Below, piece by piece: positions 44,101 through 64,000 of a DNA stretch of 64,000 nt. A model generated the notes under the pieces. It had not been told where the DNA came from. It saw only the letters and a list, made by a program, of their open reading frames with translations, and ran no database searches. The stretch is from Solirubrobacterales bacterium (GTDB lineage Bacteria > Actinomycetota > Thermoleophilia > Solirubrobacterales > Solirubrobacteraceae), in assembly GCA_027315255.1 (NCBI GenBank), contig DAHUYL010000130.1, forward strand, positions 1-64,000, in the 5' to 3' direction. The position numbers were made by a program, and so were the translations under genes. Within the stretch, counting starts at the first letter, position 1. Every line of letters starts with the position of its first letter.

Positions 44101-45450
44101 CGGCGCCGGGCCGCCCGTCGGTCCCTGGCCGATCATCGTCACGATCGCGTTTCCGTTGCAGGAGCCGACATCGGCCGCGACGACGTCCTCGGCGGCGTGA
44201 TAGATCCCGAGCTGGCTCGCGAAATCGTTGGTCAGCACCGGCCCGGTGACGCCATCGAGCTCGAACGGCGACCCCGTGACCGGCGTCAGCTGCCCGGCGC
44301 CGGTCGCCTGCTCGACCGACACCCAGTCGGCTGCGTAGAGGATGCAGCCGCAGCCACCCTGCCAGTAGTCGCCGGCGACGATTCCGACCCCGCCCGGGGT
44401 GGGCTTGCCCTGCACCTCGCCCGGCGCGAAGTACTCGGTCGCAAGGGACTGGATCTGCGTGTTGTCCGGCGCGATCTGAACCGGGCTGCCGGCCGCCAGC
44501 GAGTAGCCGCCGGTGCCGTTGCCGAGCAGGATCGACGCCTTGCCGTCGCCGAATCCGACGGCCAGGTCGTCGCCGTCGCCATCGCCGGCGTTGAAGTCGC
44601 CGGAGGTCATCGACTGCAGGTCGGTGAACGTGAAGCCGCCCCCGCAGCCGTTGGTCTCGCCGGTCGCGAACGGCGATCCGGTCGCCTCGCCGAAGCCGCC
44701 GTGCCCGTTGCCCAGGAGCACGTCGAGAACGTCGTTGGTCCCGTCGGCGACCGCGAGGTCGACGTGGTTGTTGGTGAGCGGGGCGAGCTGCGAGGCGACG
44801 ATGGCGCTCGGTCCGGCGGTGCAGCCACCGAGGGCTGGGAGTGAGATCGGCGACCCGGGTGCCTGCGTGAACGTCGGAGAGCCGGCCGGCGCGGACCCGT
44901 TGTCAAGGAACACCTGGACCTGCCCGCATGACTCCGCGACTGCGATGTCCGCGCTGCCGTCGCCGTTGAAGTCACCGGTCGCGATCGCATCCGGGGTGCA
45001 GTTCAGCGACAGCGTCGCCGGTGCGGGGGTGAAGCTGCCGTTCCCCGACCCGACCAGGATCGTGATCGTGGCGGCGAGCGCGTTGGCGACCACGAGGTCC
45101 GGGTTGGTGTCACTGCCGAACTGCGATGCGGCGATCGCATCGACGCCCGTCGAGAGCTGGATCGGCGAGCCGGGAGCCGGCGTGAAGTGGCCCAGGCCGT
45201 CGCCCAGCAGCACCGTGACCGTGCCGGACTCGTAATTGGTCAGCGCCACGTCGGCGTTCCCGTCGCTGTTGAAGTCGGCGGTCGTCATCGCCGTCGGGTA
45301 GAACAACGAGCTCGACGGCGAGATCGAGCTCGACGGGCCTGCGCTCAGCGGCGGACCCGCGGCGAGCGCCGGGGCAGGCGCCGCGAGCGCCAACAGCAGA
45401 CAGGCGATCAGCTCGGTCGAGAGCCGGACGGTTCGCGCGCGCGAGGTCAC
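41167..45450 (-). CDS. Giant secreted FG-GAP / IPT-TIG / Ig-like mosaic protein with a HELxE domain
   Basis: About 1,427 residues from GTG 45450, which overlaps the TGA of the upstream remnant. Signal peptide (about 1-30, 'LIACLLLALAAPAPALAAG'); FG-GAP/VCBS-type repeats ('TADFNSDGNADVALTNYESG', 'TGDFNGDGSADIAVAES') forming a propeller (about 35-400); an Fn3-like and an IPT/TIG domain (to about 660); a domain of about 290 residues with 'ITLSASHELDERITYDSNGW' and 'IADPCN', reminiscent of exordium/PHI-1 or metalloprotease-like 'SHELAEAxTDP' proteins; then putative-Ig and TIG domains and a helical C-terminus. Likely surface or matrix protein; catalytic activity is unproven. Confidence 0.85.
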   Translation of the reverse strand: MTSRARTVRLSTELIACLLLALAAPAPALAAGPPLSAGPSSSISPSSSLFYPTAMTTADFNSDGNADVALTNYESGTVTVLLGDGLGHFTPAPGSPIQLSTGVDAIAASQFGSDTNPDLVVANALAATITILVGSGNGSFTPAPATLSLNCTPDAIATGDFNGDGSADIAVAESCGQVQVFLDNGSAPAGSPTFTQAPGSPISLPALGGCTAGPSAIVASQLAPLTNNHVDLAVADGTNDVLDVLLGNGHGGFGEATGSPFATGETNGCGGGFTFTDLQSMTSGDFNAGDGDGDDLAVGFGDGKASILLGNGTGGYSLAAGSPVQIAPDNTQIQSLATEYFAPGEVQGKPTPGGVGIVAGDYWQGGCGCILYAADWVSVEQATGAGQLTPVTGSPFELDGVTGPVLTNDFASQLGIYHAAEDVVAADVGSCNGNAIVTMIGQGPTGGPAPPPTVFSGDGCPFSVPSATTGAVQNAGLTGATLTGTVAAGYGTPITGCEFQYGTGGFTASAPCSPPPADGGSLAVSAALSGLQAGQTYEYRLVVSDIAGSSSGSTQTFRTQGSLAPPPSVSGVNPIGGPATGAITVTLTGSGFTGATAVDFGSSPASSFTVGSDHQITAVAPAGSGAVNVTVTGPGGTSEARTNCLGSPTTAPCFNYLSPLVPASTSWQLSYGGGSVIVNPKIAIVLVGGWWCALPGQCARTTGDQAAREQAFDYLSDLQALIYTDYGPSSPYAQEIGSFGEWTGCLLFSGIGCSYDYVGEFSLLSASGSPYGVGMLPNESGTVTSNDLDAMSRSFGDPSNDSTVYLLAYAPSGAACGGGGSNNTIGSYQAAWVELCGMAPGDPLITLSASHELDERITYDSNGWYVSNVENSANQFGTAQIADPCNLRNDAGQTGYDNNLEPWLNQTRDSYGDTVAAIVVPTQKQSNFPWPGQCTVGPTSYAPVNSAIRRAGPLHARGLPPSQASTPGPEAFGRTAALARAVAPSGAGLLGFAQDGLPDATVGSGYAGSPGASGGTPPYTWHLVGGMLPPGLSLDEATGAVSGVPQQPGVWTFTIEVIDSTPARSGAAAPGSSTQSAQRMFALTVGAAPGSRPAITAVEGDHGLTTGGEVVEVNGSGFATGAQTNSFTFGRQPAGNVTCPTSVLCTMIVPAGPPGTVRVTATVAGRSSSPDAGDRFTYESVGALAVRNGELPDGQQGSAYRGSLAPFAFGGRSAYRWHLAGRALPAGLLLGQAGQLVGTPAMAGSYTFTAKVTDGSKPRRTATGRFRITITPANARLLVQAVRNAVAVALGRARRHSRGHLVELAARLSAALSRTAWVDDDHLSRRTGARAFEQLAQAASNLVGRRRPAGIDRAQATVLTARLTTAATAIAAVAINDVAGRRHTGGRVLVRARRELELGLRQTASHAPTAIADDARAWLEVEAVAGA

Positions 45451-46027
45451 CGGAGGACGAATCCGCGCGAGACCGGAGTCGGCTCCGTGCCGCCGGGTCC
45501 GATCGAGCGGACGTAGAAGGCGTAGCTGCCGGGCTTCAGGTGGGAGTAGGTTACGGTGCTTGGACCCGCGGTGCCCCTTGGGGTGCTCGGGGCCGGTGTG
45601 ACGCTTACTCGGCCCGTGCGCCGGGGTGGTGTTCTGAAGTGCGCACTGGAAGCTCGTGACCTCGCCCGTGGCCGCGAACCTGATCCTGACGCCGTGATCG
45701 CGTGCGAGCAGCTTGGCTGATTCGAGCAGGGCTCCGGGCACCGGCGGCGGCAGAGGCGCGGTCGTCGTCGTGGTCGTGGTCGCCAGCTTCGGCAGCGAGC
45801 CGGTGAGCATCACATCGGTGTCGTTGCTCGAGTCGACGTAGCTGCCGACGGACACGCACGCGCCGGGAGCGGTGCAGCCGAGCCCGTCGAGTCTGGTGTC
45901 CTCACTGCCCGTGGTGGTCGTGGCGTTGGCGGGGGGCGTGATCTCGCCGGACGGCCGCCAGCCGCCGCCCGACTCGCCGGCCGCCATCGCGAGCTGGTCG
46001 TTCTGGCTGTCGGAGTGGTAGCCGACG
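45447..46027 (-). pseudogene. 5'-truncated, frameshifted paralogue of the seven-repeat secreted protein
   Basis: The frame encodes 'GSEDTRLDGLGCTAPGACVS' and 'SLPKLATTTTTTTAPLPPP', clearly related to the end of the repeat domain of the intact gene at 51574 ('GSEDVQLDGLACTAPGACVA'). After 'FQCALQNTTP' the correct continuation is in another frame: 'RRTGRVSVTPAPSTPRGTAG' to 'GGTEPTPVSRGFVLR' and a TGA that overlaps the GTG of the next gene. The start and the first repeats are missing. One indel near 45620 restores a full C-terminal domain. Confidence 0.85.
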
Positions 46028-46223
46028 GGCTGATCGTCGCTCGTCACCGTCTCGTCACTGTCGGCATGCCCTGTCTCGATCTCCTCAGGCCGGCACTCCC
46101 AGCTCGATCCGCGATCCGCTCGACCGAAACGGCACCGACGCACCAGCGTCACCCGTCGCGCCTCACCAGCGGCGGTAGCATCGTGCCACCCAGCGCGGGA
46201 CCTCCGCAAGAGCGCTGGCCAAG

Positions 46224-47065: not shown

Positions 47066-50000
47066 ATGCGCTCAGAGCGACCATCGCCTGGGGTTCCCGA
47101 CAGCATCGAGACTCGCGCTGACCTGGCCCAGGAGTTGACGGCTCTTCGAGTCCGGTCGGGTTTGACGATCCGCGCGCTCGCCCAGCGGGTTGGCGTTCCG
47201 TCCGCCACCGTCGGCGGCTATTTCAGCGGCCGGCACCTCCCCGGTCCTGCGCAGCACGAGCTGTTCTGTTCGCTGTTGCGCGAGTGCGACGTGGCCGAGG
47301 CGATGATCGGCGGCTGGGTCGAGGCGCTCGCGCGGGTGCGTGTCAGCTCCGACGGACGCGTCGGTCGGATCCCGTCGCCGTATCGCGGTCTCGAGCCGTT
47401 CGAGGTGGCGGACGCGGAACTGTTCTTCGGCCGTGAGGGGGTCAGCGACGAGGTTCTCGCTCGATTGCGGCAGCTGACCCGGCCGGCGGTCAGCCCCGGG
47501 CAGCCTGGTCTGCTGCTGGTGCTCGGACCCTCCGGATCGGGGAAGTCGTCGCTGCTGCGGGCCGGGGTGGCGGCGAGCGTCGAGGCCGGTGCGCTCGACG
47601 ACGAGCGCAGGAGGTGGTCAGCTGCGGTGATCACCCCGGGCGAGGCACCGGCGGAGGTGCTGCGTGCGTGCCAGTCGCAGCTGGATGGAGACCCCCGGGT
47701 GATCGTCGTCGATCAGCTGGAGGAGGCGTTCGCGGCTGAGCGTGGCGAGCGGCGGCGGTTCTTCGAGGGACTGGCCGGGCTGCACGCTCCCCAGAGCCTC
47801 GTCGTCGCCGGCCTGCGGACGGACTTCTTCGAGGCGGCGCTGGGCGAGCCTCTGCTCGTATCGGCGTTCCGCCGAGGTGCGCACGTGCTCCTGGGTCCGA
47901 TGACGACCGAGGAACTGCGCCGTGCGATCGTCGAGCCCGCGCGACTGGTGGGCGTCCACGTCGAGGACGGGCTGGTCGACATGCTGCTTGCCGATCTCGC
48001 TCCCGGCAACCCGACCGGCTTCGCGCATGAGCCGGGTGCGCTGCCGCTGCTCTCGTTTGCGCTGCTCGCGACGTGGGAGCGCGCGCAGCGCAACCAGCTC
48101 GCGATCGCCGATTACCGTGAGGCAGGGGGGCTGCGTGGTGCGGTCAGCCTGCGCGCTGAGGAGCTCTACACGCAGCTCAGCCCGCACGAGCAGGAACTCG
48201 CCCGCCGCATCTTCTACAGGCTGGTCCGGGTTCAGGACGACGCTCCCTTGACCCGTCGGAGGGTCGCCCGGGACGAGCTCGACCAGCTCGCCTCCGCCTA
48301 CGAACCGGACCATTCCGCCAACGGGTCCGGGGGCGTGCTCGACCGGTTCGTCGCCGCTCGTCTGGTGACCGTCGACGCAGGGACGGTCGAACTGAGCCAC
48401 GAGGCGCTGCTGACCGCCTGGCCGCGTCTCGCAGACTGGCTGGAGCGCGACCGCCAGAGCTTGCGCCTGCACCAGCAGATCACCGATGCGGCAAATGCCT
48501 GGGTCGAGTCCGGTCGGGACCCGTCGCTGCTGCTCCGCGGCAACCGGCTCCAGGCAAGCTCCGAGTGGGCCGCCGACGGCGTTCACGCCGCTGGCTTGAA
48601 CGCGGTCGAGCGCGAGTTCCTGGACTCGAGCCGAGCGCTGGCGGAGCGCGAGCGCCAGGCTGCTCGCAGGCGCACCCGCCGCATGCAGCAGCTGCTGGGG
48701 CTGGTCGCCGTGCTCGCGATTGCGGCGTCGATCCTCGCGGTCGTTGCCTTCAACGCGCAGCAGAACGCAGCCGAGGCTCGCGACCATGCCCTCTCTCGCC
48801 AGGTCGCGATCGAGGCCGGCGAGCTCGAGCCGACGGATCCCGCACTCGCGATGCAGCTGGCGCTCGCGGCGTACCGGATCTCCCCGACCAGGCTGGCAAC
48901 CTCGTCGCTGCTCGACACCTCCGCATCCGAGATGCCCACACGGCTGCTCGGACCCACCGGGCCGACGTCGGCAGCGCTCAGCGCTGACGGACCGGAGCTC
49001 GCGGTCGCGCACTCCGCGACCAATCAGGTCTCGCTCTACGGGCTGTCGGGCGCTCGGCCGGCGCTACTGGGGACAGCGTCGACGGGCCCGGCGTCGAGTC
49101 AGCTGTTCACGGTCGCGCTGAGCCCGAACGGCCGCCTGCTGGCCGCGGGTGGCACCGGCAAGCAGGTCGTCGTGTGGAGCGTGGCGGCGCCGCGAGATCC
49201 GACGAGGCTCGCGATGCTGAGCGGCTTCACCGGAACCGTCAACGGAGTCACGTTCAGCCCCGACGGCCGGCTGCTGGCCGCGGCCGGGAGCGACGGCACG
49301 GTCCGCGAGTGGCCGGTCGGAACGCCGTTCGATCCGGCCGGGCAGGTCGTGCTGACTGCGCCTGGGCGCTCGGGTCTGCAAGCGCTGGCCTACAGCCCCG
49401 ACGGCGACACGCTGGCGGCAGTCAGCAGCGGGGGGAGCCTTTTCATCTGGCGGCTCGGCGGCGGCCTTCGCCCGGTGATCACACGCTCCGTGGCAGCGAG
49501 CACGCTCACGTCGGTCGCCTACAGCCCGAACGGGCGCACGCTGGCCGTCGGCGCTCAGGACGGGAACGTGTACCTGTTCCGGATCGGCGCCGGTGGTGCG
49601 CTCCAGACCGAGCATCCGCCGCTCGGGGGCTTCACGAGCTGGGTGGACTCGCTCGCGTTCAGCCCTGACGGCCGCTACCTGGCCGCCGGTGACTCGGACA
49701 GCACGCTGCGGATCTGGTCCGCCACCAGCTGGTCGCACGTCGCGACGCTCGTGCACACCGCTCCGGTGACCGGGATCATGTTCACGCCCGACGGGCAGAG
49801 GCTCGTCACGGTCGACGAGGACGGCACGACTCGAATCTGGTCGTTCCCACCACCCGCTGCGGTCCGCGAGCCGGGCAGCGTCTACACGATCGACTACACC
49901 GCCAGTGGCAATGAGCTGGCCGCTGTCAGTGGCGGTCCGCAGGGCAACGTCGATCTCTGGAACGTGTCTGACCCCTGGAGCCCGCTGCACGTCGCCGCGG

Positions 50001-50908
50001 TGGACATGCCTCGCGCGTTCGGTCCCGCCGCCGGAGTCGAGGCGTTCAGCCCCGACGGCAAGCTCCTGGCGGTCGGGAACGTCGCCGCCAAGGTACGCCT
50101 CGTCGACTTGGCCGATCCGCAGCACCCGCGGCTGGTCGGTGGCGTGATCTCCGGCGCCACCCCGCTGATCGAGCAGCTCGGCTTCTCACCCGACATGAAG
50201 CTGATGTCGGTCGGTGATGACGCGGGCAAGATCCTGCTCTGGAACATCGCCGATCCCGCCCACCCGATCGCGCTCCCGACGCTGAACGCCGACGGCCGCT
50301 CGAGCCAGGTGTTCGGCGTCGCCTACAGCGCCAACGGCAAGCTGCTCGCCGCTGCCTGCGCGGACCAGCGGGTCGGCCTGTGGGACATCGCCACCCCGAG
50401 CCACCCCAAGCTGCTGGCGGTGCTCGGCGGCTTCGCCAGCTACGTCTACACCGTCGCCTTCACCCCCAACAGCCGTACCCTGATCGCCGGCAGCGCCGAT
50501 GACACGCTCCGGCTGTGGGACATCAGCGACCCGGCGCACCCGCGCCTGCTCGGACACCCGCTCACCGGTCCGACCAGCACCGTCTACGACGTCGCCACCA
50601 GCCCCGACGGAAGCACGCTCGCCGCCGGCACCACAGGTCAGGACGTATGGCTGTGGAACATCAGGAATCCTGCGCACCCGGTCGAGATCGCCGACCTCAA
50701 GGCAGCTTCCGGCCAGGTCTTCGACGTCACCTTCAGCCCGAACGACAGCACCCTGGTCGCCAGTGGCGGCGACCAGACCCTTCACTACTGGGACTACCGC
50801 CCGGCGCAGGTCGCCGCCCGGATCTGCACGCTCGCCGGCACGCCGATCACCCGCTCGGAGTGGACGCAGTACATCCAGGGCGCTCCGTACCACCCGCCCT
50901 GCCGCTGA
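47066..50908 (+). CDS. HTH-nSTAND1-TM-WD40 signalling ATPase
   Basis: A 1,280-residue protein. Order: Xre-like helix-turn-helix (about 20-75, 'LTIRALAQRVGVPSATVGGY'); nSTAND1 NTPase opening with 'YRGLEPFEVADAELFFGRE', Walker A 'GPSGSGKSS' (154-162) and Walker B 'VIVVDQLEEAF'; a membrane helix near 540-562; and 14 WD40-type repeats (about 630-1240; for example 'VTFSPDGRLLAAAGSDGTV'), enough for two seven-bladed propellers. The tail ending 'SEWTQYIQGAPYHPPCR' is characteristic of actinobacterial members. STAND proteins oligomerise on ligand sensing. No effector domain other than the HTH is visible. It may be defence or signalling related. Confidence 0.93.
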   Translation: MRSERPSPGVPDSIETRADLAQELTALRVRSGLTIRALAQRVGVPSATVGGYFSGRHLPGPAQHELFCSLLRECDVAEAMIGGWVEALARVRVSSDGRVGRIPSPYRGLEPFEVADAELFFGREGVSDEVLARLRQLTRPAVSPGQPGLLLVLGPSGSGKSSLLRAGVAASVEAGALDDERRRWSAAVITPGEAPAEVLRACQSQLDGDPRVIVVDQLEEAFAAERGERRRFFEGLAGLHAPQSLVVAGLRTDFFEAALGEPLLVSAFRRGAHVLLGPMTTEELRRAIVEPARLVGVHVEDGLVDMLLADLAPGNPTGFAHEPGALPLLSFALLATWERAQRNQLAIADYREAGGLRGAVSLRAEELYTQLSPHEQELARRIFYRLVRVQDDAPLTRRRVARDELDQLASAYEPDHSANGSGGVLDRFVAARLVTVDAGTVELSHEALLTAWPRLADWLERDRQSLRLHQQITDAANAWVESGRDPSLLLRGNRLQASSEWAADGVHAAGLNAVEREFLDSSRALAERERQAARRRTRRMQQLLGLVAVLAIAASILAVVAFNAQQNAAEARDHALSRQVAIEAGELEPTDPALAMQLALAAYRISPTRLATSSLLDTSASEMPTRLLGPTGPTSAALSADGPELAVAHSATNQVSLYGLSGARPALLGTASTGPASSQLFTVALSPNGRLLAAGGTGKQVVVWSVAAPRDPTRLAMLSGFTGTVNGVTFSPDGRLLAAAGSDGTVREWPVGTPFDPAGQVVLTAPGRSGLQALAYSPDGDTLAAVSSGGSLFIWRLGGGLRPVITRSVAASTLTSVAYSPNGRTLAVGAQDGNVYLFRIGAGGALQTEHPPLGGFTSWVDSLAFSPDGRYLAAGDSDSTLRIWSATSWSHVATLVHTAPVTGIMFTPDGQRLVTVDEDGTTRIWSFPPPAAVREPGSVYTIDYTASGNELAAVSGGPQGNVDLWNVSDPWSPLHVAAVDMPRAFGPAAGVEAFSPDGKLLAVGNVAAKVRLVDLADPQHPRLVGGVISGATPLIEQLGFSPDMKLMSVGDDAGKILLWNIADPAHPIALPTLNADGRSSQVFGVAYSANGKLLAAACADQRVGLWDIATPSHPKLLAVLGGFASYVYTVAFTPNSRTLIAGSADDTLRLWDISDPAHPRLLGHPLTGPTSTVYDVATSPDGSTLAAGTTGQDVWLWNIRNPAHPVEIADLKAASGQVFDVTFSPNDSTLVASGGDQTLHYWDYRPAQVAARICTLAGTPITRSEWTQYIQGAPYHPPCR

Positions 50909-54209: not shown

Positions 54210-55178
54210 ATGCCCGACCGCTCCGTGACGCCGGCCCGGTTCGCCCGATCGCGGCTCACTCCCATCGCTGTCACGATCACGCTCGCGACGGCGACGGCGG
54301 CGGCGGGTGCGGCCGGCGCGTCGGGTGCGATCACGGCTTCGAGTCCGTTTGGCAACCCGGTAACGAACCTCTCGCCGGCCAGCGGCCTCAGCGGCGCCGG
54401 CTCGCCGTGCACTCCCTCCGGTGGCGACCGCTGGGCGGCGTGCAACGCGATCATCCTCGCGGAGATCAACGCGGCACAGGCCAGGGAGCACGCGCGGCGC
54501 CTGACGCTTCCCTCCGACTTCCTCGAGCTGACGGCGGCCGAGCAGCTGTTCGTGTGGGTCGACCTGGAGCGGGTCGCGAGGGGCGTGCCACCGCTCGTCG
54601 GGCTCTCCCCGCCGCTCGACGACGCCGCCGCGAAAGGCCTTGGCGGCAGCCTCAGCTTCGCGAGGCGCTACGGGCCGGTCACGATCGCGATCAACGAGCA
54701 GACGCACCGTTACGCGTGGAGCGGCTACACGGGCAGCGGCTCCGACATCCCGATGGCCGGCGGGCTCGTGTTCCAGATCATGTACGAGGACGGCTGGGGC
54801 GGACCCGGCCACGGCCCGTTCGGCGGGACACTCAACCCTGAGTGCAACAGCCCCCACTCGAGCGGCTGCTGGACCGATCGCGACCAGCTGCTCGGCTCGA
54901 TCACGGGCACAGCATGCACCGATTGCGTGATGGGGGCCGCCGCCGGCAAGAGCCCTGCCGGTATCGGCTCCGCATTCGCGCTGCTGATCGCACAACCCGC
55001 GACATATCCGGTCCCGCTCAGCTTCACCTGGAACGCCGACGTCCTGCCGCACCTGCCCGCTGGCTACGAGCGTGTCCGCGCCCGGCCGAGGCCGTCGGCG
55101 CCGTCGACTCCGGTTAGAACAGCCCGGGCAACGCTGCGCCCGCGTGCGACGCGAAGTCGAACAGCGGCGACGGGATGA
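54210..55178 (+). CDS. Secreted CAP-like (SCP/PR-1-type) protein
   Basis: A 322-residue exported protein: a basic N-terminus and hydrophobic signal ('AVTITLATATAAAGAAG'), then 'AIILAEINAAQAREHARRL' and 'ARGVPPLVGLSPPLDDAAAK', the arrangement of CAP-domain helices (IN..R...GVPPL..S..L..AA), and a cysteine-rich part ('NSPHSSGCWTDRD', 'TACTDCVMGAAAGKS') with Gly/Trp-rich 'YEDGWGGPGHGPFGGTLNP'. The C-terminal 40 residues are Arg/Pro-rich and overlap the nuoN stop on the other strand by 65 bases. CAP assignment is tentative. A frameshifted paralogue lies at 32.7 kb. Confidence 0.75.
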   Translation: MPDRSVTPARFARSRLTPIAVTITLATATAAAGAAGASGAITASSPFGNPVTNLSPASGLSGAGSPCTPSGGDRWAACNAIILAEINAAQAREHARRLTLPSDFLELTAAEQLFVWVDLERVARGVPPLVGLSPPLDDAAAKGLGGSLSFARRYGPVTIAINEQTHRYAWSGYTGSGSDIPMAGGLVFQIMYEDGWGGPGHGPFGGTLNPECNSPHSSGCWTDRDQLLGSITGTACTDCVMGAAAGKSPAGIGSAFALLIAQPATYPVPLSFTWNADVLPHLPAGYERVRARPRPSAPSTPVRTARATLRPRATRSRTAATG

Positions 55179-56712
55179 TCCCGAAGAACACGCTGGCGGC
55201 CGCGAACACGCCGGCGACGAGCACGACCTCCGGGTGCGGGACCCCGGTGTCGTCGGGGGGAGCAACCACACCGCTGCCTTCTGCGGGTGGGAACCCGGCT
55301 ACCAGCTCCTCCTCGCTGGGCGCTGCGCCCGCGATCGGCGCTAGCGCCGCCGCCGAGGTCGCGGCGGTCCCGGCCGCCGGCATCCACATCGTCGCAACGA
55401 CCCGCAGGTAGTAGCCGAGCGAGATCATCGACCCGATCACGAGCACGATCGCAAGCCACGTGTAGTCGCCGTCGACGAGCGCGTGGATCAGCTGGAACTT
55501 GCCGATGAAGCCGACGGTACCCGGGATCCCGGCGAGGCCGAGCATGCCGATCGTCAGCGGCCACGCGGCCCACGGGTTGCGGGCGCCGAGGCCGGCGAAG
55601 CCGCTCAGCTGGTCGTCGCCCGCGTCGCGCTCGACCGCGACGATCGCTGCGAAGGCGGCGATGTTCAGCATCAGGTAGGCGCCGAGGTACAGCACCGTGG
55701 CCGACACGCCAAGGCTCGTCCCGACGACGACGCCGGCCAGCATGTAGCCGGCCTGGGCGACGCCCGAGTAGCCGAGCATCCGCTTCATCGAGGTCTGCCC
55801 GAGGGCGCCGACGTTGCCGACGATGATCGTGACCGCGGCGATCGTCGCGATCAGCGGCCCCCACTTGTTCTGGGCCGAGGACGCGGCGACGTCGAAGAAG
55901 CGCAGGAAGATCGCGAGCGCGGCGGCCTTCGTGGCCGTCGCCATGAACGCGGTGATCGGCGTCGGGGCGCCCTCGTAGACATCCGGCGTCCATTGGTGAA
56001 ACGGCGCGACGGACGCCTTGAACGCGAACCCGACGGTGACGAGCGCCAGTCCCGTCAGCAGCAACGGGTCGCTGAACACCCCGCCTGACAGCGCGCCCGA
56101 GGTGAGCGCGGAGCCGATCTGCGCAAACCCCGTCTGGCCGGTCGCGCCGTAGATCATCGCAAGGCCGTAGACGAGCGTCGCCGAGCCGACCGACCCGATC
56201 ACGAGGTACTTGAGGCCCGACTCGAGCGATCCCTCGCGGCGGTGCTCGGCGGCGCACAGGATGTACAGCGGGATCGACAGCAGCTCGAGCCCGAGGAACA
56301 GCGTGACGATGTCCTGCGAGGAGGACAGCACCGCCATCCCCATCACGCTGAACAGCAGCAACCCGTAGAACTCGCCCTGTCCGGCCTCGCGCGGCGCGAC
56401 TCCGCGCCACGACATCAGGACGGTCGCCAGTGCCGACACAGCGCAGATCAGATCGACGATCAGCCCGAGGTCGTCGATCGAGAGTGCGCCGTGGATGATC
56501 GACCCGGGGTGGTTGAAGCGCCAGATCTCGGTACCGATCGCGGCGCCGAGCGCGACGACCGTCAGCAGCGGCACGATCCGCTCGCGCACGGCCGCGGGGC
56601 GCAGCAGCCCGACGAGCAGCACGATCACCGCCCCGCCGCCGAGCGCGAGCAACGGCGACAGCCCCTTCCAGTCGATCGGCGGCCCGGCGATGTGGTGGAC
56701 CGCGGCGATCAC
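55114..56712 (-). CDS. nuoN: NADH-quinone oxidoreductase subunit N
   Basis: Antiporter-like proton-pumping subunit of complex I. 532 residues, GTG 56712 overlapping the nuoM stop (GTGA). About 14 helices. The key glutamate of helix 5 is present ('LFLGLELLSIPLYIL'), and the lysine/helix 7-8 region is 'AFKASVAPFHQWTPDVYEGA'. A cytoplasmic Ala/Pro/Glu-rich insertion precedes the last helix, explaining the extra length. It is the last gene of the nuo operon. Confidence 0.95.
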   Translation of the reverse strand: MIAAVHHIAGPPIDWKGLSPLLALGGGAVIVLLVGLLRPAAVRERIVPLLTVVALGAAIGTEIWRFNHPGSIIHGALSIDDLGLIVDLICAVSALATVLMSWRGVAPREAGQGEFYGLLLFSVMGMAVLSSSQDIVTLFLGLELLSIPLYILCAAEHRREGSLESGLKYLVIGSVGSATLVYGLAMIYGATGQTGFAQIGSALTSGALSGGVFSDPLLLTGLALVTVGFAFKASVAPFHQWTPDVYEGAPTPITAFMATATKAAALAIFLRFFDVAASSAQNKWGPLIATIAAVTIIVGNVGALGQTSMKRMLGYSGVAQAGYMLAGVVVGTSLGVSATVLYLGAYLMLNIAAFAAIVAVERDAGDDQLSGFAGLGARNPWAAWPLTIGMLGLAGIPGTVGFIGKFQLIHALVDGDYTWLAIVLVIGSMISLGYYLRVVATMWMPAAGTAATSAAALAPIAGAAPSEEELVAGFPPAEGSGVVAPPDDTGVPHPEVVLVAGVFAAASVFFGIIPSPLFDFASHAGAALPGLF

Positions 56713-58226
56713 GGGTGCACGCTTGCCGTCGTAGCGGAAGCCGACCCCGCGACCGCAACCGCGGCCGCCGGCGCCAGCGCGACGCGACTCGACGCCTGCG
56801 AGCGCGTCAGGACGAACTGCGGGTAGAACGCGAGCACGAGGATCACGATCACCAGCGGCACGATCGCCACCGCCTCGGCGAGCTTCACCTCGCCGGGCGA
56901 GGCGACCCCCCGGCCGACCCGGTTGTGCATCGAGGTGATGAACAGCCGCAGCGCGTACACCGCGGCCCCGATCACGCCGAGGAACGCGATCACCGAGATC
57001 GCGAGCTGCGCCTTGAACACGCCGAGCAGGATCATGAACTCGCCGATGAAGTTGGCCGACCCGGGCATCGCCAGGGTCGCGAACGCGACGATCAGGAACA
57101 GCGACGCGAGCACCGGCGCGCGGAACGCGATGCCGCCCATGTCGGCGAGCTTCTCGCTGCCGCCGCAGCGGGCCGCCAGCGCGGCGACGACGAAGAACGC
57201 ACCGGCGGTGACGATCCCGTGGTTGACCATCTGCAGCAGCGCACCCTGCGCGCCCTCGGGCCGCAGCGAGAAGATCCCGAGCGTGATGAACGCGAGCTGG
57301 GCGACGCTCGAGTAGGCGATCACCAGCCGCGAGTCGGCGGTGGTGAACGCAAGCGCCGTGGCCCACAGGATCGACACGAGCGCGATCAGCAGCATCAGCG
57401 TCTGGTAGTGACGGGCGGCGTAGGGGAACAGCGGGATCGCGATCTTCAGGAACCCGTAGGCGGCGACCTTCGACAGCAGCCCCGAGAACACGGCGAGCGC
57501 CGGGATCGGCATCGACTTGTACGCGTCGGCCAGCCAGCCGTGCAGCGGCACCAGCGGCATCTTCACCAGGAACGCCGCCGCGAAGCACAGGAACAGCCAG
57601 TCCTGCGAGGTGTGCGACAGGTGCAGGTGCGACAGCGCCGACAGCGTGAACTCGATCGGGGTCCCGTTCTGGTTCGACGCGAGCACGCCGGCGGCAACCG
57701 CGGCGACCAGCATCAGGAACGACCCGACCATCGTGTAGATCACCATCTTGATCGTCGCCCGGCGCCGCTCGCCGGTGCCCCAGGCGCCGACCAGGAAGTA
57801 GAACGGCACCAGCATCAGGTCGAAGAACGCGACGAACAGGATCACGTCCTGAGCGCAGAACGCCCCGAGCACGGCGCTCTCGGCGAGGCCGAACCAGAAG
57901 TAGTACATGCGCGGCCGCTCGATCTCCGAGCGAGCCGCCGACCAGAACAGCGACAGGCTGAAGAGGACCGTGGTCAGCAGCACGAGCGTCATGTTCAGCC
58001 CGTCGAGCGCGAGCTTGTAGTGGATCCCGAGCGAGCCGATCCAGACGTGGTCCTGGACGAACTGCAACCCGCCGGCGCCGGATTTGAACCGCACCATGTA
58101 GTCGATCGCGATCCCCAGCGGCGCGAGGCTCGTGACCGCCGTGAACCGCCCGACCCACGGCTCATCGAGCTGGGCGCCGATGAATGCCAGCGCCAGCGGC
58201 AGCCAGATCAGGATCGAGAGCGTCAT
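56709..58226 (-). CDS. nuoM: NADH-quinone oxidoreductase subunit M
   Basis: Antiporter-like subunit of complex I, 505 residues, start ATG 58226, 17 bases after nuoL. Two residues differ from the usual pattern: the helix-5 glutamate position holds Asp136 ('FVAFFDLMLVPFYF'), and the normally conserved HTWLPDAHxxAPT segment reads 'LHGWLADAYKSMPIPALAVF'. The pump-lysine region 'FLVKMPLVPLH' is kept. Overlaps nuoN by four bases. Confidence 0.95.
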   Translation of the reverse strand: MTLSILIWLPLALAFIGAQLDEPWVGRFTAVTSLAPLGIAIDYMVRFKSGAGGLQFVQDHVWIGSLGIHYKLALDGLNMTLVLLTTVLFSLSLFWSAARSEIERPRMYYFWFGLAESAVLGAFCAQDVILFVAFFDLMLVPFYFLVGAWGTGERRRATIKMVIYTMVGSFLMLVAAVAAGVLASNQNGTPIEFTLSALSHLHLSHTSQDWLFLCFAAAFLVKMPLVPLHGWLADAYKSMPIPALAVFSGLLSKVAAYGFLKIAIPLFPYAARHYQTLMLLIALVSILWATALAFTTADSRLVIAYSSVAQLAFITLGIFSLRPEGAQGALLQMVNHGIVTAGAFFVVAALAARCGGSEKLADMGGIAFRAPVLASLFLIVAFATLAMPGSANFIGEFMILLGVFKAQLAISVIAFLGVIGAAVYALRLFITSMHNRVGRGVASPGEVKLAEAVAIVPLVIVILVLAFYPQFVLTRSQASSRVALAPAAAVAVAGSASATTASVHP

Positions 58227-58242: not shown

Positions 58243-60255
58243 TCAGCTCGACACGATCAGGAAGTAGAGGGCGATCGCCGACAGCCCGAGGATCACGGCG
58301 GCTGCATAGAGGCGCAACAGCCCGGTCTGCGCGCGGCGGACCCCGGCGGACACCGCGCGGACGCTGCCGGTGACACCTCCGGTGACCCCGCCGCCGATCA
58401 CGATCCGCTCGAGCACCGACTCCGCCAGCCGCCCGACCAGCAGCGCCGGCCGCACGACCACGATGTCGATCAGCTCGTCGAAGTACCACTTGTTGTAGAG
58501 GAACGTGTGAACCGGCGCCAGCCGCTCCTGCAGGCGCTTGGAGCTGCCCGGCGCGGCGATGTACAGGCGGTACGCGGTCACGATCCCGACGAGCCCGACG
58601 ATCGGCGTCACGATCAGCCCGATCCAGGCAGTCCCGGTCGAGGGATCGTGGTGGAACAGCTTCGACCCGGTGAACGCCGGCGACAGGAAGGTCGAGATCA
58701 CGTGGTCGACGCCCGGGAGCTGGATCACGCCGGCGGCGAGCGCCCCGAGCGCGAGCAGGCTCATCGCGACCTTCATCGGCCACTCCCGCTCGGCGATCAC
58801 GTGCTCGGGGCCCGGGAAGCCGACGTCGGTGTCCTCCTCCTCGCCCGTCATCGGGTTCCGCGGAACCTCGGCGTGGGCGAGGTGGCCGTGCTGGAGCTCG
58901 ACCGCCTCGGGCGAGGGAGCGCCGAAGAACGCCCGGAAGATCATCCGGAACGTGTACATGCCGGTGATCAGCGCGCCGAGCTCGCCGCCGACGCCGAGGA
59001 TCGGGTAGATCCCGCCGCGGTGGAACGTGTAGCCGATCACGTCGTCCTTCGACACCCAGCCCGAGAACGGCGGGATCCCCGACAGCGCCAGGCCGCCGAC
59101 GATGAAGCACAGGAACGTGAACGGCATCGCCTTGCGGAACCCGCTCATCCGGTCGAGCGACTGATCGCCCGCCATCGCGCCGATGATCGAGCCGGCCGCC
59201 ATGAACAGCAGCGCCTTGAAGAACGCGTGCGTCATCAGGTGAAACAGCGCCCCCGAGTACGCGCCGGCGGCGGCGCCCATGATCATGTAGCCGATCTGCG
59301 ACATCGTCGAGTACGCGATCACGCGCTTGATGTCCACAACGACCAGGCCGATCGACCCGGCGATCAGCAGCGTCGCGCAGCCGACGATCGCGCCGACCTC
59401 GGCCGCCGTCGGCGCCAGCTCGAACAGCGGGTGCAACCGCACGATCAGGTACACGCCCGCGGTCACCATCGTCGCCGCGTGGATCAGCGACGACACCGGG
59501 GTCGGACCCTCCATCGCGTCCGGGAGCCAGGTGTGAAGCGGCACCTGTGCCGACTTCGCGAACGCGCCGACCAGGAACAGGAGACAGCCGGCGACCAGAT
59601 CGGTCGAGTCCACACGGAACACATGGTGGATCTGGCTGAACGTCTGCAGGAACTGCACCGTGCCCGTGTGCCTGAAGATGAAGAACGTTCCGAGCACGAG
59701 CCCGACGTCGCCGACGACGTTGATCACGAACGCCTTGATCCCGGCGCCCGTCGCGGTGCTGCGCCGGTACCAGAACGAGATCAGCATGTACGAGGCGGCA
59801 CCGACGAACGCCCACCCGACGATCAACAGGATGAAGTTGCCGGCGAGGACCAGCACCAGCATCGACAGCACGAAGTAGTTGAGGTAGGCGAAGTAACGGA
59901 CGAACCCGCGGTCGCCCTTCATGTATGAGACCGAGTACAGGTGGATCAGCGTCGAGACCCCGGAGACGACCAGGATCATGAACACCGAGATCGGGTCGAC
60001 CAGGATCTGCAGCTTGCCGTCGACGCCGGAGCTGACCGCGTAGCTCCACAGCGTCGAGACGACCTCGCGGTGCGCCGGATCCCGCCCGAGCAGCGACAGC
60101 AGCGCCCCGACCGAGCAGACGAACGACAGCGCGATCGCGAGCGTCCCGAGCCACCCCGCCGTCCGTGCGGGCCAGCGATTCCAGCCGGCGCTGATCACCG
60201 CCGCGCCGAGCAGCGGGAACAGCAGCACCAACCAGCCCCACGCAGTCGGGCTCAT
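58243..60255 (-). CDS. nuoL: NADH-quinone oxidoreductase subunit L
   Basis: Largest antiporter-like subunit of complex I, 670 residues with the C-terminal amphipathic lateral helix and final membrane helix. 'FAKSAQVPLHTWLPDAMEGP' carries the conserved Lys and HTWLPDAM motif. The helix-5 motif, normally GWExVG, reads 'VGWAFVGAASYML', with Ala149 at the usual glutamate. Start ATG 60255 overlaps the nuoK stop (ATGA). Confidence 0.95.
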   Translation of the reverse strand: MSPTAWGWLVLLFPLLGAAVISAGWNRWPARTAGWLGTLAIALSFVCSVGALLSLLGRDPAHREVVSTLWSYAVSSGVDGKLQILVDPISVFMILVVSGVSTLIHLYSVSYMKGDRGFVRYFAYLNYFVLSMLVLVLAGNFILLIVGWAFVGAASYMLISFWYRRSTATGAGIKAFVINVVGDVGLVLGTFFIFRHTGTVQFLQTFSQIHHVFRVDSTDLVAGCLLFLVGAFAKSAQVPLHTWLPDAMEGPTPVSSLIHAATMVTAGVYLIVRLHPLFELAPTAAEVGAIVGCATLLIAGSIGLVVVDIKRVIAYSTMSQIGYMIMGAAAGAYSGALFHLMTHAFFKALLFMAAGSIIGAMAGDQSLDRMSGFRKAMPFTFLCFIVGGLALSGIPPFSGWVSKDDVIGYTFHRGGIYPILGVGGELGALITGMYTFRMIFRAFFGAPSPEAVELQHGHLAHAEVPRNPMTGEEEDTDVGFPGPEHVIAEREWPMKVAMSLLALGALAAGVIQLPGVDHVISTFLSPAFTGSKLFHHDPSTGTAWIGLIVTPIVGLVGIVTAYRLYIAAPGSSKRLQERLAPVHTFLYNKWYFDELIDIVVVRPALLVGRLAESVLERIVIGGGVTGGVTGSVRAVSAGVRRAQTGLLRLYAAAVILGLSAIALYFLIVSS

Positions 60256-60551
60256 CCGTTCAGCTCGTGCAGTTCGTCGACGTCGATCGGGAGGTTCCGG
60301 CGGTAGATCGCGACGATCAGGCCGAGCCCGACTGTCACCTCGCAGGCGGCGACGACCATCACGATCAGCGCGAACACCTGGCCCGCCTCGCCCCCGTGCA
60401 TCCGCGCGAACGCGACCAGTGCGAGGTTGGCGGCGTTCAGCATCAGCTCGAGGCACAGCAGGATCACCAGCGGGTTGCGGCGCGTGAGCACGCCGCCGGC
60501 GCCGATGCAGAAGATCAGCACGGACACGGTCAGGTACCAGCCGATCGGCAT
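60252..60551 (-). CDS. nuoK: NADH-quinone oxidoreductase subunit K
   Basis: A 99-residue membrane subunit with three helices. Both conserved glutamates of the quinone-coupled proton path are present: in 'LCLELMLNAANLALVAF' and 'VVAACEVTVGLGL'. Lies between nuoJ and nuoL, overlapping nuoL by four bases and separated from nuoJ by one base. Confidence 0.96.
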   Translation of the reverse strand: MPIGWYLTVSVLIFCIGAGGVLTRRNPLVILLCLELMLNAANLALVAFARMHGGEAGQVFALIVMVVAACEVTVGLGLIVAIYRRNLPIDVDELHELNG

Positions 60552-60552
60552 C

Positions 60553-61209
60553 TCAGCTCCCCGCGTCCGTCCGCTCGAGCTCGGCCCCGGCGCGGACGGC
60601 CTCGATCAGCTCGGGCACGATCCGCGGCAGCCCGGCCGCCTCGGCCATCGTCCCGGTGAACACGGGCCGCGGCGTATGCAGGAGGCGGCTCTCGAGCTCG
60701 GGGTCGTCGAGCCCGCGACGGCGCCGCGCCAGCACGACCGCCCCGATCGCCGCGACCAGCAGCAGCAGCGAGGCGAGCTCGAACGGGAACAGGTACGAGG
60801 TCAGGAACAGCCGCCCGATCTCCCTCGGCGTGCCGAACCCGCGCACGTACGGCGCGCCCTTGCCGCCGATCCCCGACAGCGCCGAGCCGAGCATCGCGAT
60901 GCACAGCTCGACCGCCAGCGCCAGCGCGAACAGCGGCCCCAGCACCCGCAGCGCCGCGCCCGCCTGGTACTCCTCGCCGCCGCCCACGTACGCGACCACG
61001 AACACGTACAGGACCATCACCGCGCCCGCGTACACGACCACCTGCGCGGCGGCGACGAACTCCGCCCGCAGCAGCAGGAACAGCGCCGCCAGCGCGACCA
61101 GGTGACAGACGAGCGCGAGCACGCTGTAGAACGGGTTGCGCAGCGTCACGACGCCGATCGCACCAGCGAGCGCGCCGATCGCGGCGATGAAGAACAGGAC
61201 GGCCGACAC
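60553..61209 (-). CDS. nuoJ: NADH-quinone oxidoreductase subunit J
   Basis: A 218-residue membrane subunit with five helices and the conserved 'AAAQVVVYAGAVMVLYVFV' third helix. GTG 61209 is used; its ribosome site would lie at the end of nuoI. The cytoplasmic C-terminus is longer than in E. coli and charged. Confidence 0.93.
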   Translation of the reverse strand: MSAVLFFIAAIGALAGAIGVVTLRNPFYSVLALVCHLVALAALFLLLRAEFVAAAQVVVYAGAVMVLYVFVVAYVGGGEEYQAGAALRVLGPLFALALAVELCIAMLGSALSGIGGKGAPYVRGFGTPREIGRLFLTSYLFPFELASLLLLVAAIGAVVLARRRRGLDDPELESRLLHTPRPVFTGTMAEAAGLPRIVPELIEAVRAGAELERTDAGS

Positions 61210-61223
61210 GACGGTGCGGGACC

Positions 61224-61757
61224 CTACTCCCCGGGCACGCGCAGCGGCGTGCGCTCGATCGGCTCGGCCAGCAGCATCTCCTTGGTGAAGATCAGGTCCG
61301 AGCGGGTGTAGTCGGACAGCTCGTAGTCGTGGCCCATCGTGATCGCGTCGAACGGGCACGCGACCTCGCAGTAACCGCAGAAGATGCAGCGCGACAGGTT
61401 GATCTCGTACACCGCCGCGTAGCGCTCGCCGGCCGACACGCGGTTCTCCGGGGTGTTCTCGGCGGCGACCACGCGGATGCAGTCGGCCGGGCAGGCGGCT
61501 GCGCACAGCGAGCAACCGACACACTTCTCGAGGCCGGTGTCCTCGAACCGGTGCAGCTTGTGACGCCCGCGGAAGCGCGGGTACACCGGTGTCTTCTCCT
61601 CGGGGTACTGGATCGTGTGCGGTCCCTCGACGACGCGTGCGAACGTCGTCTTGAGCCCGCGCAGCGTCTCCCCGAAGATCCGGTAGGTGCCGGCCACGGG
61701 CCCGCGCGGCGGGTGTCGCATCACCTCGATCACGTCAGCGGAAGGGTCGTATCCCAC
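61224..61757 (-). CDS. nuoI: NADH-quinone oxidoreductase subunit I (two 4Fe-4S clusters)
   Basis: A 177-residue peripheral-arm subunit that relays electrons to N2. Two ferredoxin motifs are complete: '[12 protein letters not shown]' and '[12 protein letters not shown]', each with the fourth Cys for the other cluster. '[17 protein letters not shown]' precedes the first. Ten bases separate it from nuoH. Confidence 0.97.
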
Positions 61758-61767
61758 AAGCGCCTCC

Positions 61768-62784
61768 TCAGGCCACGACGATCGCGGTCACCAGCAGGTT
61801 GACAGTTGCGAGCGGCAGCAGGATCTTCCACCCGAAGGACATCAGCTGGTCGTAGCGCAGCCGCGGCAGCGTCGCCCGGATCCAGATGAACAGCGTGATG
61901 AAGATCATCATCTTGGCGGCGACGATGAACGGGTCGATCCACCCTGGGATGCTCGGGTTGCCGGGAATCAGCCAGCCGCCGAGGAACATCGTCGTGGCGA
62001 TCGCCGAGACGACGATCATGTTCACGTACTCGGCGAACAGGTACGCGACGAAGCCGGTGCCGCCGTACTCCGTGAAGTAGCCACCGACGAGCTCGGCGTC
62101 GGCCTCGACCAGGTCGAACGGCGCCCGGTTCGTCTCCGCGAACGATGCGACCATGAAGATCAGGAAGCCGAGCAGCTGCGGCACGATGTACCACATCCCC
62201 CGCTGCGCATGGATGATCCCGGTGAGTGACAGCGTCTGCGAGGTGATCACCACGCCGACGAGCGCGAGCCCCTGTGACACCTCGTAGGAGATCAGCTGCG
62301 CCGCTGCGCGCATCGACCCGAGGAACGAGTACTTCGAGCCCGACGCCCAGCCGCCGAGCATGATCCCGTAGAACGAGATCCCCGCCATCGCGAACACGTA
62401 CAGGGGGCCGACCGACACGTCGATCCCGTACAGGCCGAAGCGCGTCCCGAAGATGTGCTGGACGTTGCCCCACGGGATGATCGCGAGCGCCGCGACCGCC
62501 GTCAGGATCGCGATCGCGGGCGCCACGCGGAACAGGAACCCGATCGAGGTGGTGGGCCGGAACGGCTCCTTGACGGCGAACTTGACGATCTCGGCGAGCG
62601 GCTGCAGGAGGCCGAACGGCCCGACTCGGTTGGGGCCGTAGCGCCCCTGGAAGCGGCCGAGCAGCTTGCGCTCGTACACGGTCAGCATCGGCAGGACCGC
62701 GAACACGATCCCGAAGATCACGAGCGCCTTGACGATCTGCGCCCACCACGGCTCGAAGTAGTTGACGTCGGCGAACTGGATCAC
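61768..62784 (-). CDS. nuoH: NADH-quinone oxidoreductase subunit H
   Basis: A 338-residue membrane subunit forming much of the quinone-binding chamber. The signature '[20 protein letters not shown]' follows helix 1, and '[20 protein letters not shown]' is the second conserved loop with its acidic residues. GTG 62784 overlaps the nuoG stop (GTGA). Confidence 0.97.
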
Positions 62785-64000
62785 GCGCGCCTGACCTCCA
62801 CGAGTGGCTCGGTCAGGTGGTTGGCCGACGCCTGCGCGATCCCGGTGGCGAGGAACGCGGTCCCCTCGGGCACGCCGGTCCGGACCGCCGCGCGGCCGCG
62901 CAGGCGCGTGCCGCCCGAGCCGACGAGCACCTCGTCGCCGTCGCCGACCTCGAGCCGCCGCGCGTCGGCCGGCGACAGCTCGACCAGCTGCTCGGCGATC
63001 GTGTAGTGCAGCGCGGGCGAGATCTCGACCTCGGGCGCGGCCCAGATCGAGCGATACGTGCCGAGCCGGAGGTGGCCATTCGTTTGTCCTGCTGCTGCCG
63101 GCTGCACAGTGCCGGCAGCAGCGCCCGGCGTCTGCGCCGAACCGCCGCCCGCCGGCAGGGCCGCCGCCTCGGGCCGCTCGGGCCACCGCACCCCGCGCCC
63201 GCCGATCTGCTCGAGCGTGATCCCCGCGTAGAACGGGACCGCCGCGACGAGCTGGCGGAACGCCATCGAGCTGGTCAGGACGCCGAGGTCATGGCCGCAG
63301 CGGCGCGCCAGCTCGGCGATCACCGACCAGCCGGCGCGGACCTCGCCCGGATGCGCGATCGCCGCGCGGAGGCGCTGGAGGCGGCCGTCGGGGTGGACGA
63401 CCGTGCCCTCCTTCTCGGCATGCGACTCGGCGGGGAAGATCACCGTGGCGTGGTCGCGCAGCCCGTCGGTCAGGACCGACGCGTGGGCGATCACGAGCCC
63501 GGCGTGGTGAAGCGCCGCCTCCCAGGCGGCGCGGTCCGGCAGCTCGCGGACGGGGTCGACCTCGAGCAGGTACAGCGCGCTGAGCTCGCCGCCGGCCGCG
63601 GCGGCCGCGATCGCCGCCGCGTCGCGGCCCCGCGGAGCGCCGAGCTCGGCGTACCCCGGGCCGGCGTTCGGCAGCGCCCCCGCCTCGCGCACGCCGCGCC
63701 CGTTGGCCGACGCCGGCACGCCGAGCAGCCCGGCGCCGTCGCGGCCCTCGAGCCCGAGCAGCCGTGCGATCCGCACGAGCGACTCGAGCGCCGCCGGCGC
63801 GAGCGACTCGCCGTACACGATCACGACGTCCTCGCCGCCCGAGCGCAGCAGCTCGGCCAGCGAGGCCACGTCGTCGCCGGACCCGCTGGAGGCGTGCCCC
63901 AAAGCCGCCTCCAGCGCAGACAGGAATGCGGCCTCGCCGTCCGGCGCGTAGCGCAGCGACACGGCGGCGTTCGGGTCGAGCGCGCTCGGGCGCGGCGAGG
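62781..64000 (-). CDS. nuoG: NADH-quinone oxidoreductase subunit G, C-terminal part (5' end outside window)
   Basis: The visible 406 codons correspond to the C-terminal part of the molybdopterin-oxidoreductase-like region, including 'ALYLLEVDPVRELPDRAAW', 'HASVLTDGLRDHATVIFPAESHAEKEGTVVHPDGRLQRL' region and a final molydopterin-dinucleotide-binding domain ('LVELSPADARRLEVGDGDEV'). The N-terminal iron-sulfur part lies beyond base 64000. The stop overlaps nuoH. Confidence 0.93.
   Translation of the reverse strand, partial: SPRPSALDPNAAVSLRYAPDGEAAFLSALEAALGHASSGSGDDVASLAELLRSGGEDVVIVYGESLAPAALESLVRIARLLGLEGRDGAGLLGVPASANGRGVREAGALPNAGPGYAELGAPRGRDAAAIAAAAAGGELSALYLLEVDPVRELPDRAAWEAALHHAGLVIAHASVLTDGLRDHATVIFPAESHAEKEGTVVHPDGRLQRLRAAIAHPGEVRAGWSVIAELARRCGHDLGVLTSSMAFRQLVAAVPFYAGITLEQIGGRGVRWPERPEAAALPAGGGSAQTPGAAAGTVQPAAAGQTNGHLRLGTYRSIWAAPEVEISPALHYTIAEQLVELSPADARRLEVGDGDEVLVGSGGTRLRGRAAVRTGVPEGTAFLATGIAQASANHLTEPLVEVRRA

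What the first reader, a model, noticed from the sequence alone, without database searches (positions are those of the whole stretch)
56709..58226. NuoM with Asp in place of the helix-5 Glu and an altered HTWLPDAH segment
Asp136 replaces the usual Glu and 'HGWLADAYKSMPIP' replaces the near-universal HTWLPDAHxxAPT. With the NuoL change this suggests a co-evolved variant of two of the three antiporter-like subunits.
Basis: partly seen in the sequence, partly recalled or inferred. Interest (0 to 1): 0.5.

Follow-up and report, generated by a model that had tools for sequence, protein, structure and literature searches.

The report
Order-specific variant of complex I NuoM
The NuoM proton-pump subunit of this bacterium's respiratory complex I carries unusual residues shared across its bacterial order, and its partner subunit NuoL has lost a charge pair long thought indispensable, giving a natural test of how complex I passes protons between subunits.

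Summary
The residues are real. NuoM (minus strand, 56709-58226, 505 aa) has Asp136 where E. coli has Glu144, and HGWLADAYKSMPIP at 229-242. It is an authentic NuoM in a complete nuoA-N operon, the only canonical copy found in this 92%-complete genome. It is neither an error nor a private mutation: 51 of 51 own-type NuoMs read in the same order (Solirubrobacterales by named relatives) have Asp, Tyr at E. coli site 248 and Gln at 322. 'Near-universal' HTWLPDAH is overstated: E. coli reads HGWLPDAH, and other actinobacteria have Tyr, Ala, Met or Gly at the last His. The co-evolution idea is half right. NuoL lost Glu144 together with its partner Arg175 (94 of 155 operons, always both), once on the tree (one mosaic gene aside), in an ancestor wider than the order. 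All 94 have Tyr248 in NuoM. The NuoM Glu-to-Asp change came later, once in the order; elsewhere it arose separately with NuoL intact (3 changes in all). Best reading: a working proton pump in which Asp136-Lys222 replaces Glu-Lys and NuoL runs on the single Lys-Asp178 pair. The NuoL pair deletion is the more interesting part.

The parts
56709..58226 (-). nuoM, NADH-quinone oxidoreductase subunit M (505 aa)
   Evidence: ORF; TIGR01972 398.7 bits, cut-off 263.8; AF2 model mean pLDDT 95.8; top Foldseek hits come from complex I and NDH entries, e.g. E. coli 3rko, TM-score 0.92
57819..57821 (-). codon of Asp136 (E. coli NuoM Glu144, helix 5)
57561..57563 (-). codon of Lys222 (E. coli Lys234), expected ion-pair partner of Asp136
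   Evidence: a helix ends at 222 in the model
57501..57542 (-). HGWLADAYKSMPIP, residues 229-242; Tyr236 = E. coli His248
57297..57299 (-). codon of Gln310 (E. coli His322, lateral path to Glu407)
56946..56948 (-). codon of Arg427 (E. coli Ala438); Arg in 94 of 94 NuoL-altered operons, as in paralogues NuoL and NuoN
58243..60255 (-). nuoL (670 aa); Ala149 for Glu144, Val180 for Arg175; Asp183 (D178) and Lys234 (K229) kept
   Evidence: NF005141 (PRK06590) and TIGR01974 over cut-off; residues
59809..59811 (-). codon of NuoL Ala149 (E. coli Glu144)
59716..59718 (-). codon of NuoL Val180 (E. coli Arg175)
55114..56718 (-). nuoN (start codon uncertain); Glu145 (E133) and Lys234 (K217) kept
   Evidence: TIGR01770 385.0 bits, cut-off 332.6
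60252..60551 (-). nuoK
   Evidence: NF004320 122.5 bits, cut-off 57
61224..61757 (-). nuoI
   Evidence: TIGR01971 147.4 bits, cut-off 113.05
60553..64000 (-). nuoJ, nuoH and the 3' part of nuoG (nuoI lies between J and H); the operon runs on to nuoA outside the window (contig C160, to about 70,030)

Best explanation
This is the NuoM of an ordinary, complete, proton-pumping complex I that belongs to a clade-specific variant. Shown: helix 5 carries Asp instead of Glu in every own-type NuoM read from the order, the helix-7 Lys, helix-8 Lys and helix-12 Glu are kept, and NuoL in the same operon has lost the Glu144-Arg175 charge pair but keeps Lys229 and Asp178. Inferred: it pumps protons; Asp136 forms the Lys222 ion pair that Glu144 forms in E. 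coli, one methylene shorter. Tyr236 lines the N-side water channel in place of His248, as Tyr does in NuoN. Gln310 supports the proton or water wire toward Glu396 in place of His322, as Gln does in NuoL. In NuoL the double ion pair has collapsed to the single Lys-Asp178 pair, so the NuoM-NuoL hand-over uses Asp178 and water instead of Glu144. Order of events: the NuoL pair was deleted with NuoM Tyr248 already present or gained about then; NuoM Glu-to-Asp followed at the base of Solirubrobacterales.
For: Family membership and all 14 operon genes; only canonical copy found in the genome, so it must do the work. 51 of 51 order NuoMs read, and 48 of 48 readable of 50 Solirubrobacterales-type named loci (partly the same genomes), have Asp, including Solirubrobacter soli DSM 22325 and Patulibacter minatonensis DSM 18081. 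NuoL Glu and Arg are lost together in 94 of 94, and Asp178 is kept in 154 of 155. These are the only two charged positions in NuoL that separate the two groups at E. coli-numbered sites under the thresholds used. One NuoL loss, and Asp derived inside it: FastTree of 156 rows and IQ-TREE of 51 chosen rows (clade SH-aLRT 99). Altered NuoM states are native in paralogues: LAD and Q322 in E. coli NuoL, Y248 in NuoN, R438 in both. Model with the helix-7 break. Published: H320L in Paracoccus NuoM (= H322) keeps 57% activity and four protons (PMC9802314, passages); in one B. subtilis assay NuoL E144Q differed only slightly from unmutated NuoL (PMC4938563, passages).
Against: No activity or structure of any member was found. 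In Paracoccus E141Q and H246F (= Glu144, His248) abolish catalysis (PMC9802314), so these sites are sensitive; neither Asp nor Tyr was among the substitutions in the passages read. The Lys222-Asp136 distance was not measured (no coordinates available). The only canonical NuoMs with Asp outside the order are from one small class, so tolerance of Asp elsewhere is thinly sampled; outside Actinomycetota I saw only the loci, E. coli and solved chains.
Confidence: 0.78

Rival explanations
1. The NuoL-NuoM interface no longer passes protons: NuoL in this clade is a weaker or uncoupled pump, so the enzyme moves fewer protons per NADH, perhaps to keep driving flux at low redox span.
For: NuoL lacks the helix-5 Glu and Arg175. 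The domino model gives that Glu the proton hop from NuoL to NuoM helix 12 (PMC10212512, passages). NuoL E144Q is cited as low in pumping and oxidoreductase activity (PMC4938563, passages).
Against: Lys229, His254, His338, Lys342 and Lys399 stay conserved in the NuoL-altered rows, and Asp178 too; loss of pumping would be expected to relax them. The variant persists in several orders and, by record labels, three phyla. Paracoccus NuoM mutants that still turn over remain strictly coupled (PMC9802314, passages).
Confidence: 0.12
2. True site-to-site co-evolution: NuoL Glu144 loss directly selected the NuoM changes at 144, 248 and 322 to rebalance one shared proton wire.
For: 94 of 94 NuoL-altered operons have NuoM Tyr248, 88 of 94 have Arg at 312 and 77 of 94 Gln at 322.
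Against: A single NuoL loss gives no statistical power (2 independent pairs). Asp occurs with intact NuoL and Glu with altered NuoL; Tyr248 occurs with intact NuoL in 6 of 61.
Confidence: 0.2
3. Artefact, pseudogene or a second non-complex-I paralogue.
For: The contig belongs to a 231-contig, 92.2%-complete assembly.
Against: Open frame, full operon, order-wide conservation including cultured strains; only canonical copy found.
Confidence: 0.02

Closest known systems
E. coli / Paracoccus / mycobacterial respiratory complex I NuoM (ND4, Nqo13)
   Same: Fold, operon place, Lys234, Lys265, His348, Glu407, broken helix 7 (the E. coli numbering is)
   Different: Asp for Glu144, Tyr for His248, Gln for His322, Arg for Lys312 and Ala438 of E. 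coli
Complex I of Gaiellaceae, Miltoncostaea, Dormibacterota and Thermosporothrix hazakensis (named loci)
   Same: NuoL without Glu144 and Arg175; NuoM Tyr248
   Different: NuoM keeps Glu144; His322 is kept in some
E. coli NuoN and NuoL (paralogues)
   Same: Tyr231 of NuoN, Gln315 and LAD of NuoL, Arg431/Arg427 match the altered NuoM states
   Different: They are other subunits; both have helix-5 Glu in E. coli
Second nuo-like operon in G015, G032, G034, G053 (families scanned in G015 only: diverged NuoD, NuoH, L, M, N)
   Same: NuoM also has Asp at 144
   Different: HTWLPAAH and intact NuoL Glu/Arg, but NuoN Glu133 is lost; NuoD match only 56 bits in G015

Membership tests
NuoM of respiratory complex I (TIGR01972) | Profile score over curated cut-off | tested here: met
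   398.7 against 263.8 bits
NuoM of respiratory complex I (TIGR01972) | Located between nuoL and nuoN in a complete nuo operon | tested here: met
   All 14 subunits matched; NuoA, NuoE and NuoJ matched below the curated cut-offs
NuoM of respiratory complex I (TIGR01972) | Helix-7 Lys, helix-8 Lys, helix-12 Glu | tested here: met
   K222, K253, E396
NuoM of respiratory complex I (TIGR01972) | Helix-5 Glu | tested here: not met
   Asp136: still a carboxylate; I file it as NuoM on the curated profile cut-off, operon place and fold, none of which requires this residue
NuoM of respiratory complex I (TIGR01972) | Fold of NuoM/ND4 | tested here: met
   AF2 mean pLDDT 95.8; the first 22 Foldseek hits are from complex I or NDH entries, most by chain letter M, D or 4; Mrp chains appear from rank 23
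NuoM of respiratory complex I (TIGR01972) | Proton pumping coupled to NADH oxidation | not testable with these tools
   needs enzyme assay
Canonical NuoL | Helix-5 Glu144 with Arg175 | tested here: not met
   Ala149 and Val180; still over the PRK06590 and TIGR01974 cut-offs, so a NuoL, but not of the canonical residue pattern

The most novel reading that the evidence does not exclude
A whole bacterial lineage (Thermoleophilia in part, Dormibacterota, at least one ktedonobacterium) runs its complex I with no helix-5 carboxylate in NuoL. The M-to-L proton hand-over that current mechanisms assign to NuoL Glu144 must then be done by Asp178 and water, or is absent; Solirubrobacterales have further shortened the NuoM gate to Asp-Lys.
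Probability: 0.45. Interest if true: 0.65.

Novelty: new variant of a known kind. Interest (0 to 1): 0.42.

Why it matters
How complex I passes protons along its membrane arm is disputed. One leading model calls the helix-12, helix-8 and helix-7/helix-5 sites a minimum necessary set and uses the NuoL helix-5 Glu for the hop to NuoM (PMC10212512, passages). Another paper calls that Glu fully conserved (PMC4938563, passages). Here is a natural, long-lived enzyme family without it, with cultured members, plus an order that swaps the NuoM Glu for Asp. Measuring its proton ratio would test the models directly. By itself the NuoM Asp is a conservative swap of modest interest.

Tried and rejected
Rejected: artefact or pseudogene (order-wide, cultured strains). 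Rejected: second canonical nuo operon in the window's genome; the other hits, on contig C39, match hydrogenase-4 subunits B and F beside a NuoD-like protein. Rejected: Asp and NuoL loss as one coupled event. Literature searches for NuoM E144D, NuoL with Solirubrobacter, Thermoleophilia complex I, NuoL Glu144 not conserved, complex I evolution with NuoL and Chloroflexi, and NuoM E144A/helix 5 with aspartate listed no report of either change (CC-licensed PMC papers only; listings and abstract starts, showing 10 of 85). Eight papers were seen as passages found by term; none was read whole. The NuoM Glu144 study of Torres-Bacete 2009 is not held, so whether E144D was made there is unknown to me. 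The only Solirubrobacterales-type operon among the 155 with NuoL Glu/Arg (L190) has a mosaic NuoL: after about residue 200 it is up to 92% identical per 50-residue block to a Solirubrobacterales NuoL, before that as low as 39%, and it starts at the edge of the contig. It is recombination or an assembly chimera; it is counted in the tallies, but I give it no weight as a counter-example.

Full report
WHAT IS THERE. The 505-aa frame 56709-58226 is on the minus strand and is NuoM: TIGR01972 398.7 bits, cut-off 263.8. It sits between nuoL (58243-60255) and nuoN (55114 to about 56718). Family scans matched all 14 subunits: L and M, A, B, C, D, E, F, G, H and J, and I, K and N. NuoA, NuoE and NuoJ matched below the curated cut-offs. 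My first scan of nuoN used a wrong frame and matched nothing. The AF2 model from 34 aligned sequences has mean pLDDT 95.8 and a helix ending at residue 222. The first 22 Foldseek hits come from complex I or NDH entries, most by chain letter the M/ND4/NdhD subunit; Mrp chains appear from rank 23.

THE RESIDUES. Against E. coli (numbering by alignment): Asp136 = Glu144; Lys222 = Lys234; Tyr236 = His248; Lys253 = Lys265; Arg300 = Lys312; Gln310 = His322; His336 = His348; Glu396 = Glu407; Arg427 = Ala438. The main altered states are native in E. coli paralogues: LAD and Gln in NuoL, Tyr in NuoN, Arg (site 438) in both. Asp at 144 is not: NuoL, NuoM and NuoN of E. coli all have Glu there.

DISTRIBUTION IN THE ORDER. 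One search covered 61 genomes (the window's own and 60 relatives of its genus, family or order); 58 had a match at 1e-20, and one of these (G015) had only the other type. I read own-type NuoM from 51 order genomes: 41 and 10 more (sequences). All 51 have Asp144, Tyr248 and Gln322. Sixteen matching genomes were not read in that tally, some of them fragments. The segment itself varies: HGWLADAYKSMPIP exactly in 7 of 51, Pro at 245 in 28 and Ala in 18, Met-Pro at 251-252 in 40. They include Solirubrobacter soli DSM 22325 and Patulibacter minatonensis DSM 18081. Of the other 30 loci (L203-L232) 29 have Glu and one is unread.

NUOL. The window's NuoL reads GWAFVG where E. coli reads GWEGVG, and NVVGD where E. 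coli reads TRVGD. The five solved NuoL chains shown keep Glu and Arg. Of 182 loci, 169 had a NuoL. After dropping duplicates by NuoM and rows with gaps at the six key sites, 155 operons remained. Glu144 is lost in 94 (Ala 73, Gly 20, Ser 1) and Arg175 is lost in exactly those 94 (Val 83, Ala 10, Ile 1). The 61 others have Glu with Arg (59) or Lys (2). Asp178 is kept in 154 of 155. A screen for D, E, K, R, H, Y and W (over 85% in one group, under 20% in the other) found these the only two charged E. coli-numbered NuoL sites that separate the groups; an Asp-to-Glu difference at a column absent from E. coli also does.

COUPLING OF THE TRAITS. All 94 NuoL-altered operons have NuoM Tyr248; the 61 intact ones have His 49, Tyr 6, Ala 4, Met 1, Gly 1. 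NuoM Asp occurs in 67 of 94 altered and 7 of 61 intact operons. The seven are L075, L077, L081 and L098 (the second operon type), L277 (a divergent second copy), L244 (a canonical operon of another class) and L190 (mosaic NuoL). A NuoM with partial neighbours from another genome of that class, L131, also has Asp; a third genome of that class, L147/L245, has Glu. On a FastTree of 156 rows without the trait columns the fewest changes are 3 for NuoM Asp, 2 for NuoL Glu loss (the second is L190) and 5 for NuoM non-His248. Only 2 independent pairs exist, so no correlation can be claimed. Part of that tree print was cut from the output. IQ-TREE on 51 chosen rows, without L190 and the second operons, gives 1 change for NuoL loss, with the clade at SH-aLRT 99, and 2 for NuoM Asp. 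Named members of the NuoL-altered clade include the order, Gaiellaceae, Miltoncostaea, Dormibacterota and Thermosporothrix hazakensis. Among the 40 stretches fetched (37 from other classes of the phylum, 3 second copies from the same class), 38 had a readable NuoL and all 38 keep its Glu.

MECHANISM. Passages read: in E. coli NuoL the ion pairs are K229-D178 and E144-R175, in NuoM K234-E144, with NuoM input residues K312, D258, H248, K265 and exit via H348 and H322 to E407 (PMC13324432). Pair opening lowers the lateral transfer barrier electrostatically (PMC11496545). Asp136 keeps the carboxylate, and Lys222 is invariant in the 34-sequence alignment A2, so I infer the same gate with a shorter arm. 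Paracoccus H246F at the 248 site is inactive and E141Q at the 144 site too (PMC9802314), but natural Tyr, Ala, Met and Gly at 248 argue for a water path rather than an obligatory His. Deleting Glu144 and Arg175 together is charge-neutral and leaves K229-D178; computed pKa values of Asp178 and Glu144 in E. coli trade off (PMC13358369, legend of a supporting figure), which makes Asp178 a plausible stand-in. This last step is inference.

STATUS. It is a new variant of a known enzyme. The NuoM Asp is conservative and order-specific in the canonical operons read, apart from one small class; the NuoL pair loss is the real surprise and is wider than the finding. No report of either appeared in the listings of the CC-licensed library searched.

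Noticed in passing
L081/L281 (G015), L075/L282 (G034), L077 (G032), L098 (G053): A second nuo-like operon in some order genomes has NuoM Asp144, intact NuoL Glu/Arg, but NuoN Glu133 replaced by Gly or Ala and Lys295 by Val; in G015 its NuoD is very divergent. G015, a one-contig genome of the window's genus, shows only this type by NuoM and NuoL search.
   Followed up: partly
L190 1-1835: Mosaic NuoL in a Thermoleophilaceae MAG: front part with canonical Glu/Arg, rear part Solirubrobacterales-like; recombination or assembly chimera at a contig edge.
   Followed up: partly
L283 (window genome contig C39:9000-28457): Hydrogenase-4 subunit B-like and subunit F-like proteins next to a NuoD-like large subunit: a separate membrane-bound oxidoreductase in the same genome.
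   Followed up: partly
L276, L277, L279: Other divergent second copies: L276 NuoN Glu133 to Gln, Lys217 to Glu and NuoL Lys399 to Glu; L277 NuoN Glu133 to Leu, NuoM Glu407 to Asp, NuoL Asp178 to Gly; L279 NuoN Lys295 to Val.
   Followed up: no
L166, L205, L212: Record titles name Chlamydiae or Bifidobacterium breve, but the genes look like Solirubrobacterales (L166) or other Thermoleophilia (L205, L212); probably mislabelled MAGs.
   Followed up: no
window 41167-46209, 47066-50908: Large neighbouring genes: an FG-GAP/integrin-like repeat protein and a helix-turn-helix plus WD40 repeat protein (read from the ORF list; names recalled, not scanned).
   Followed up: no
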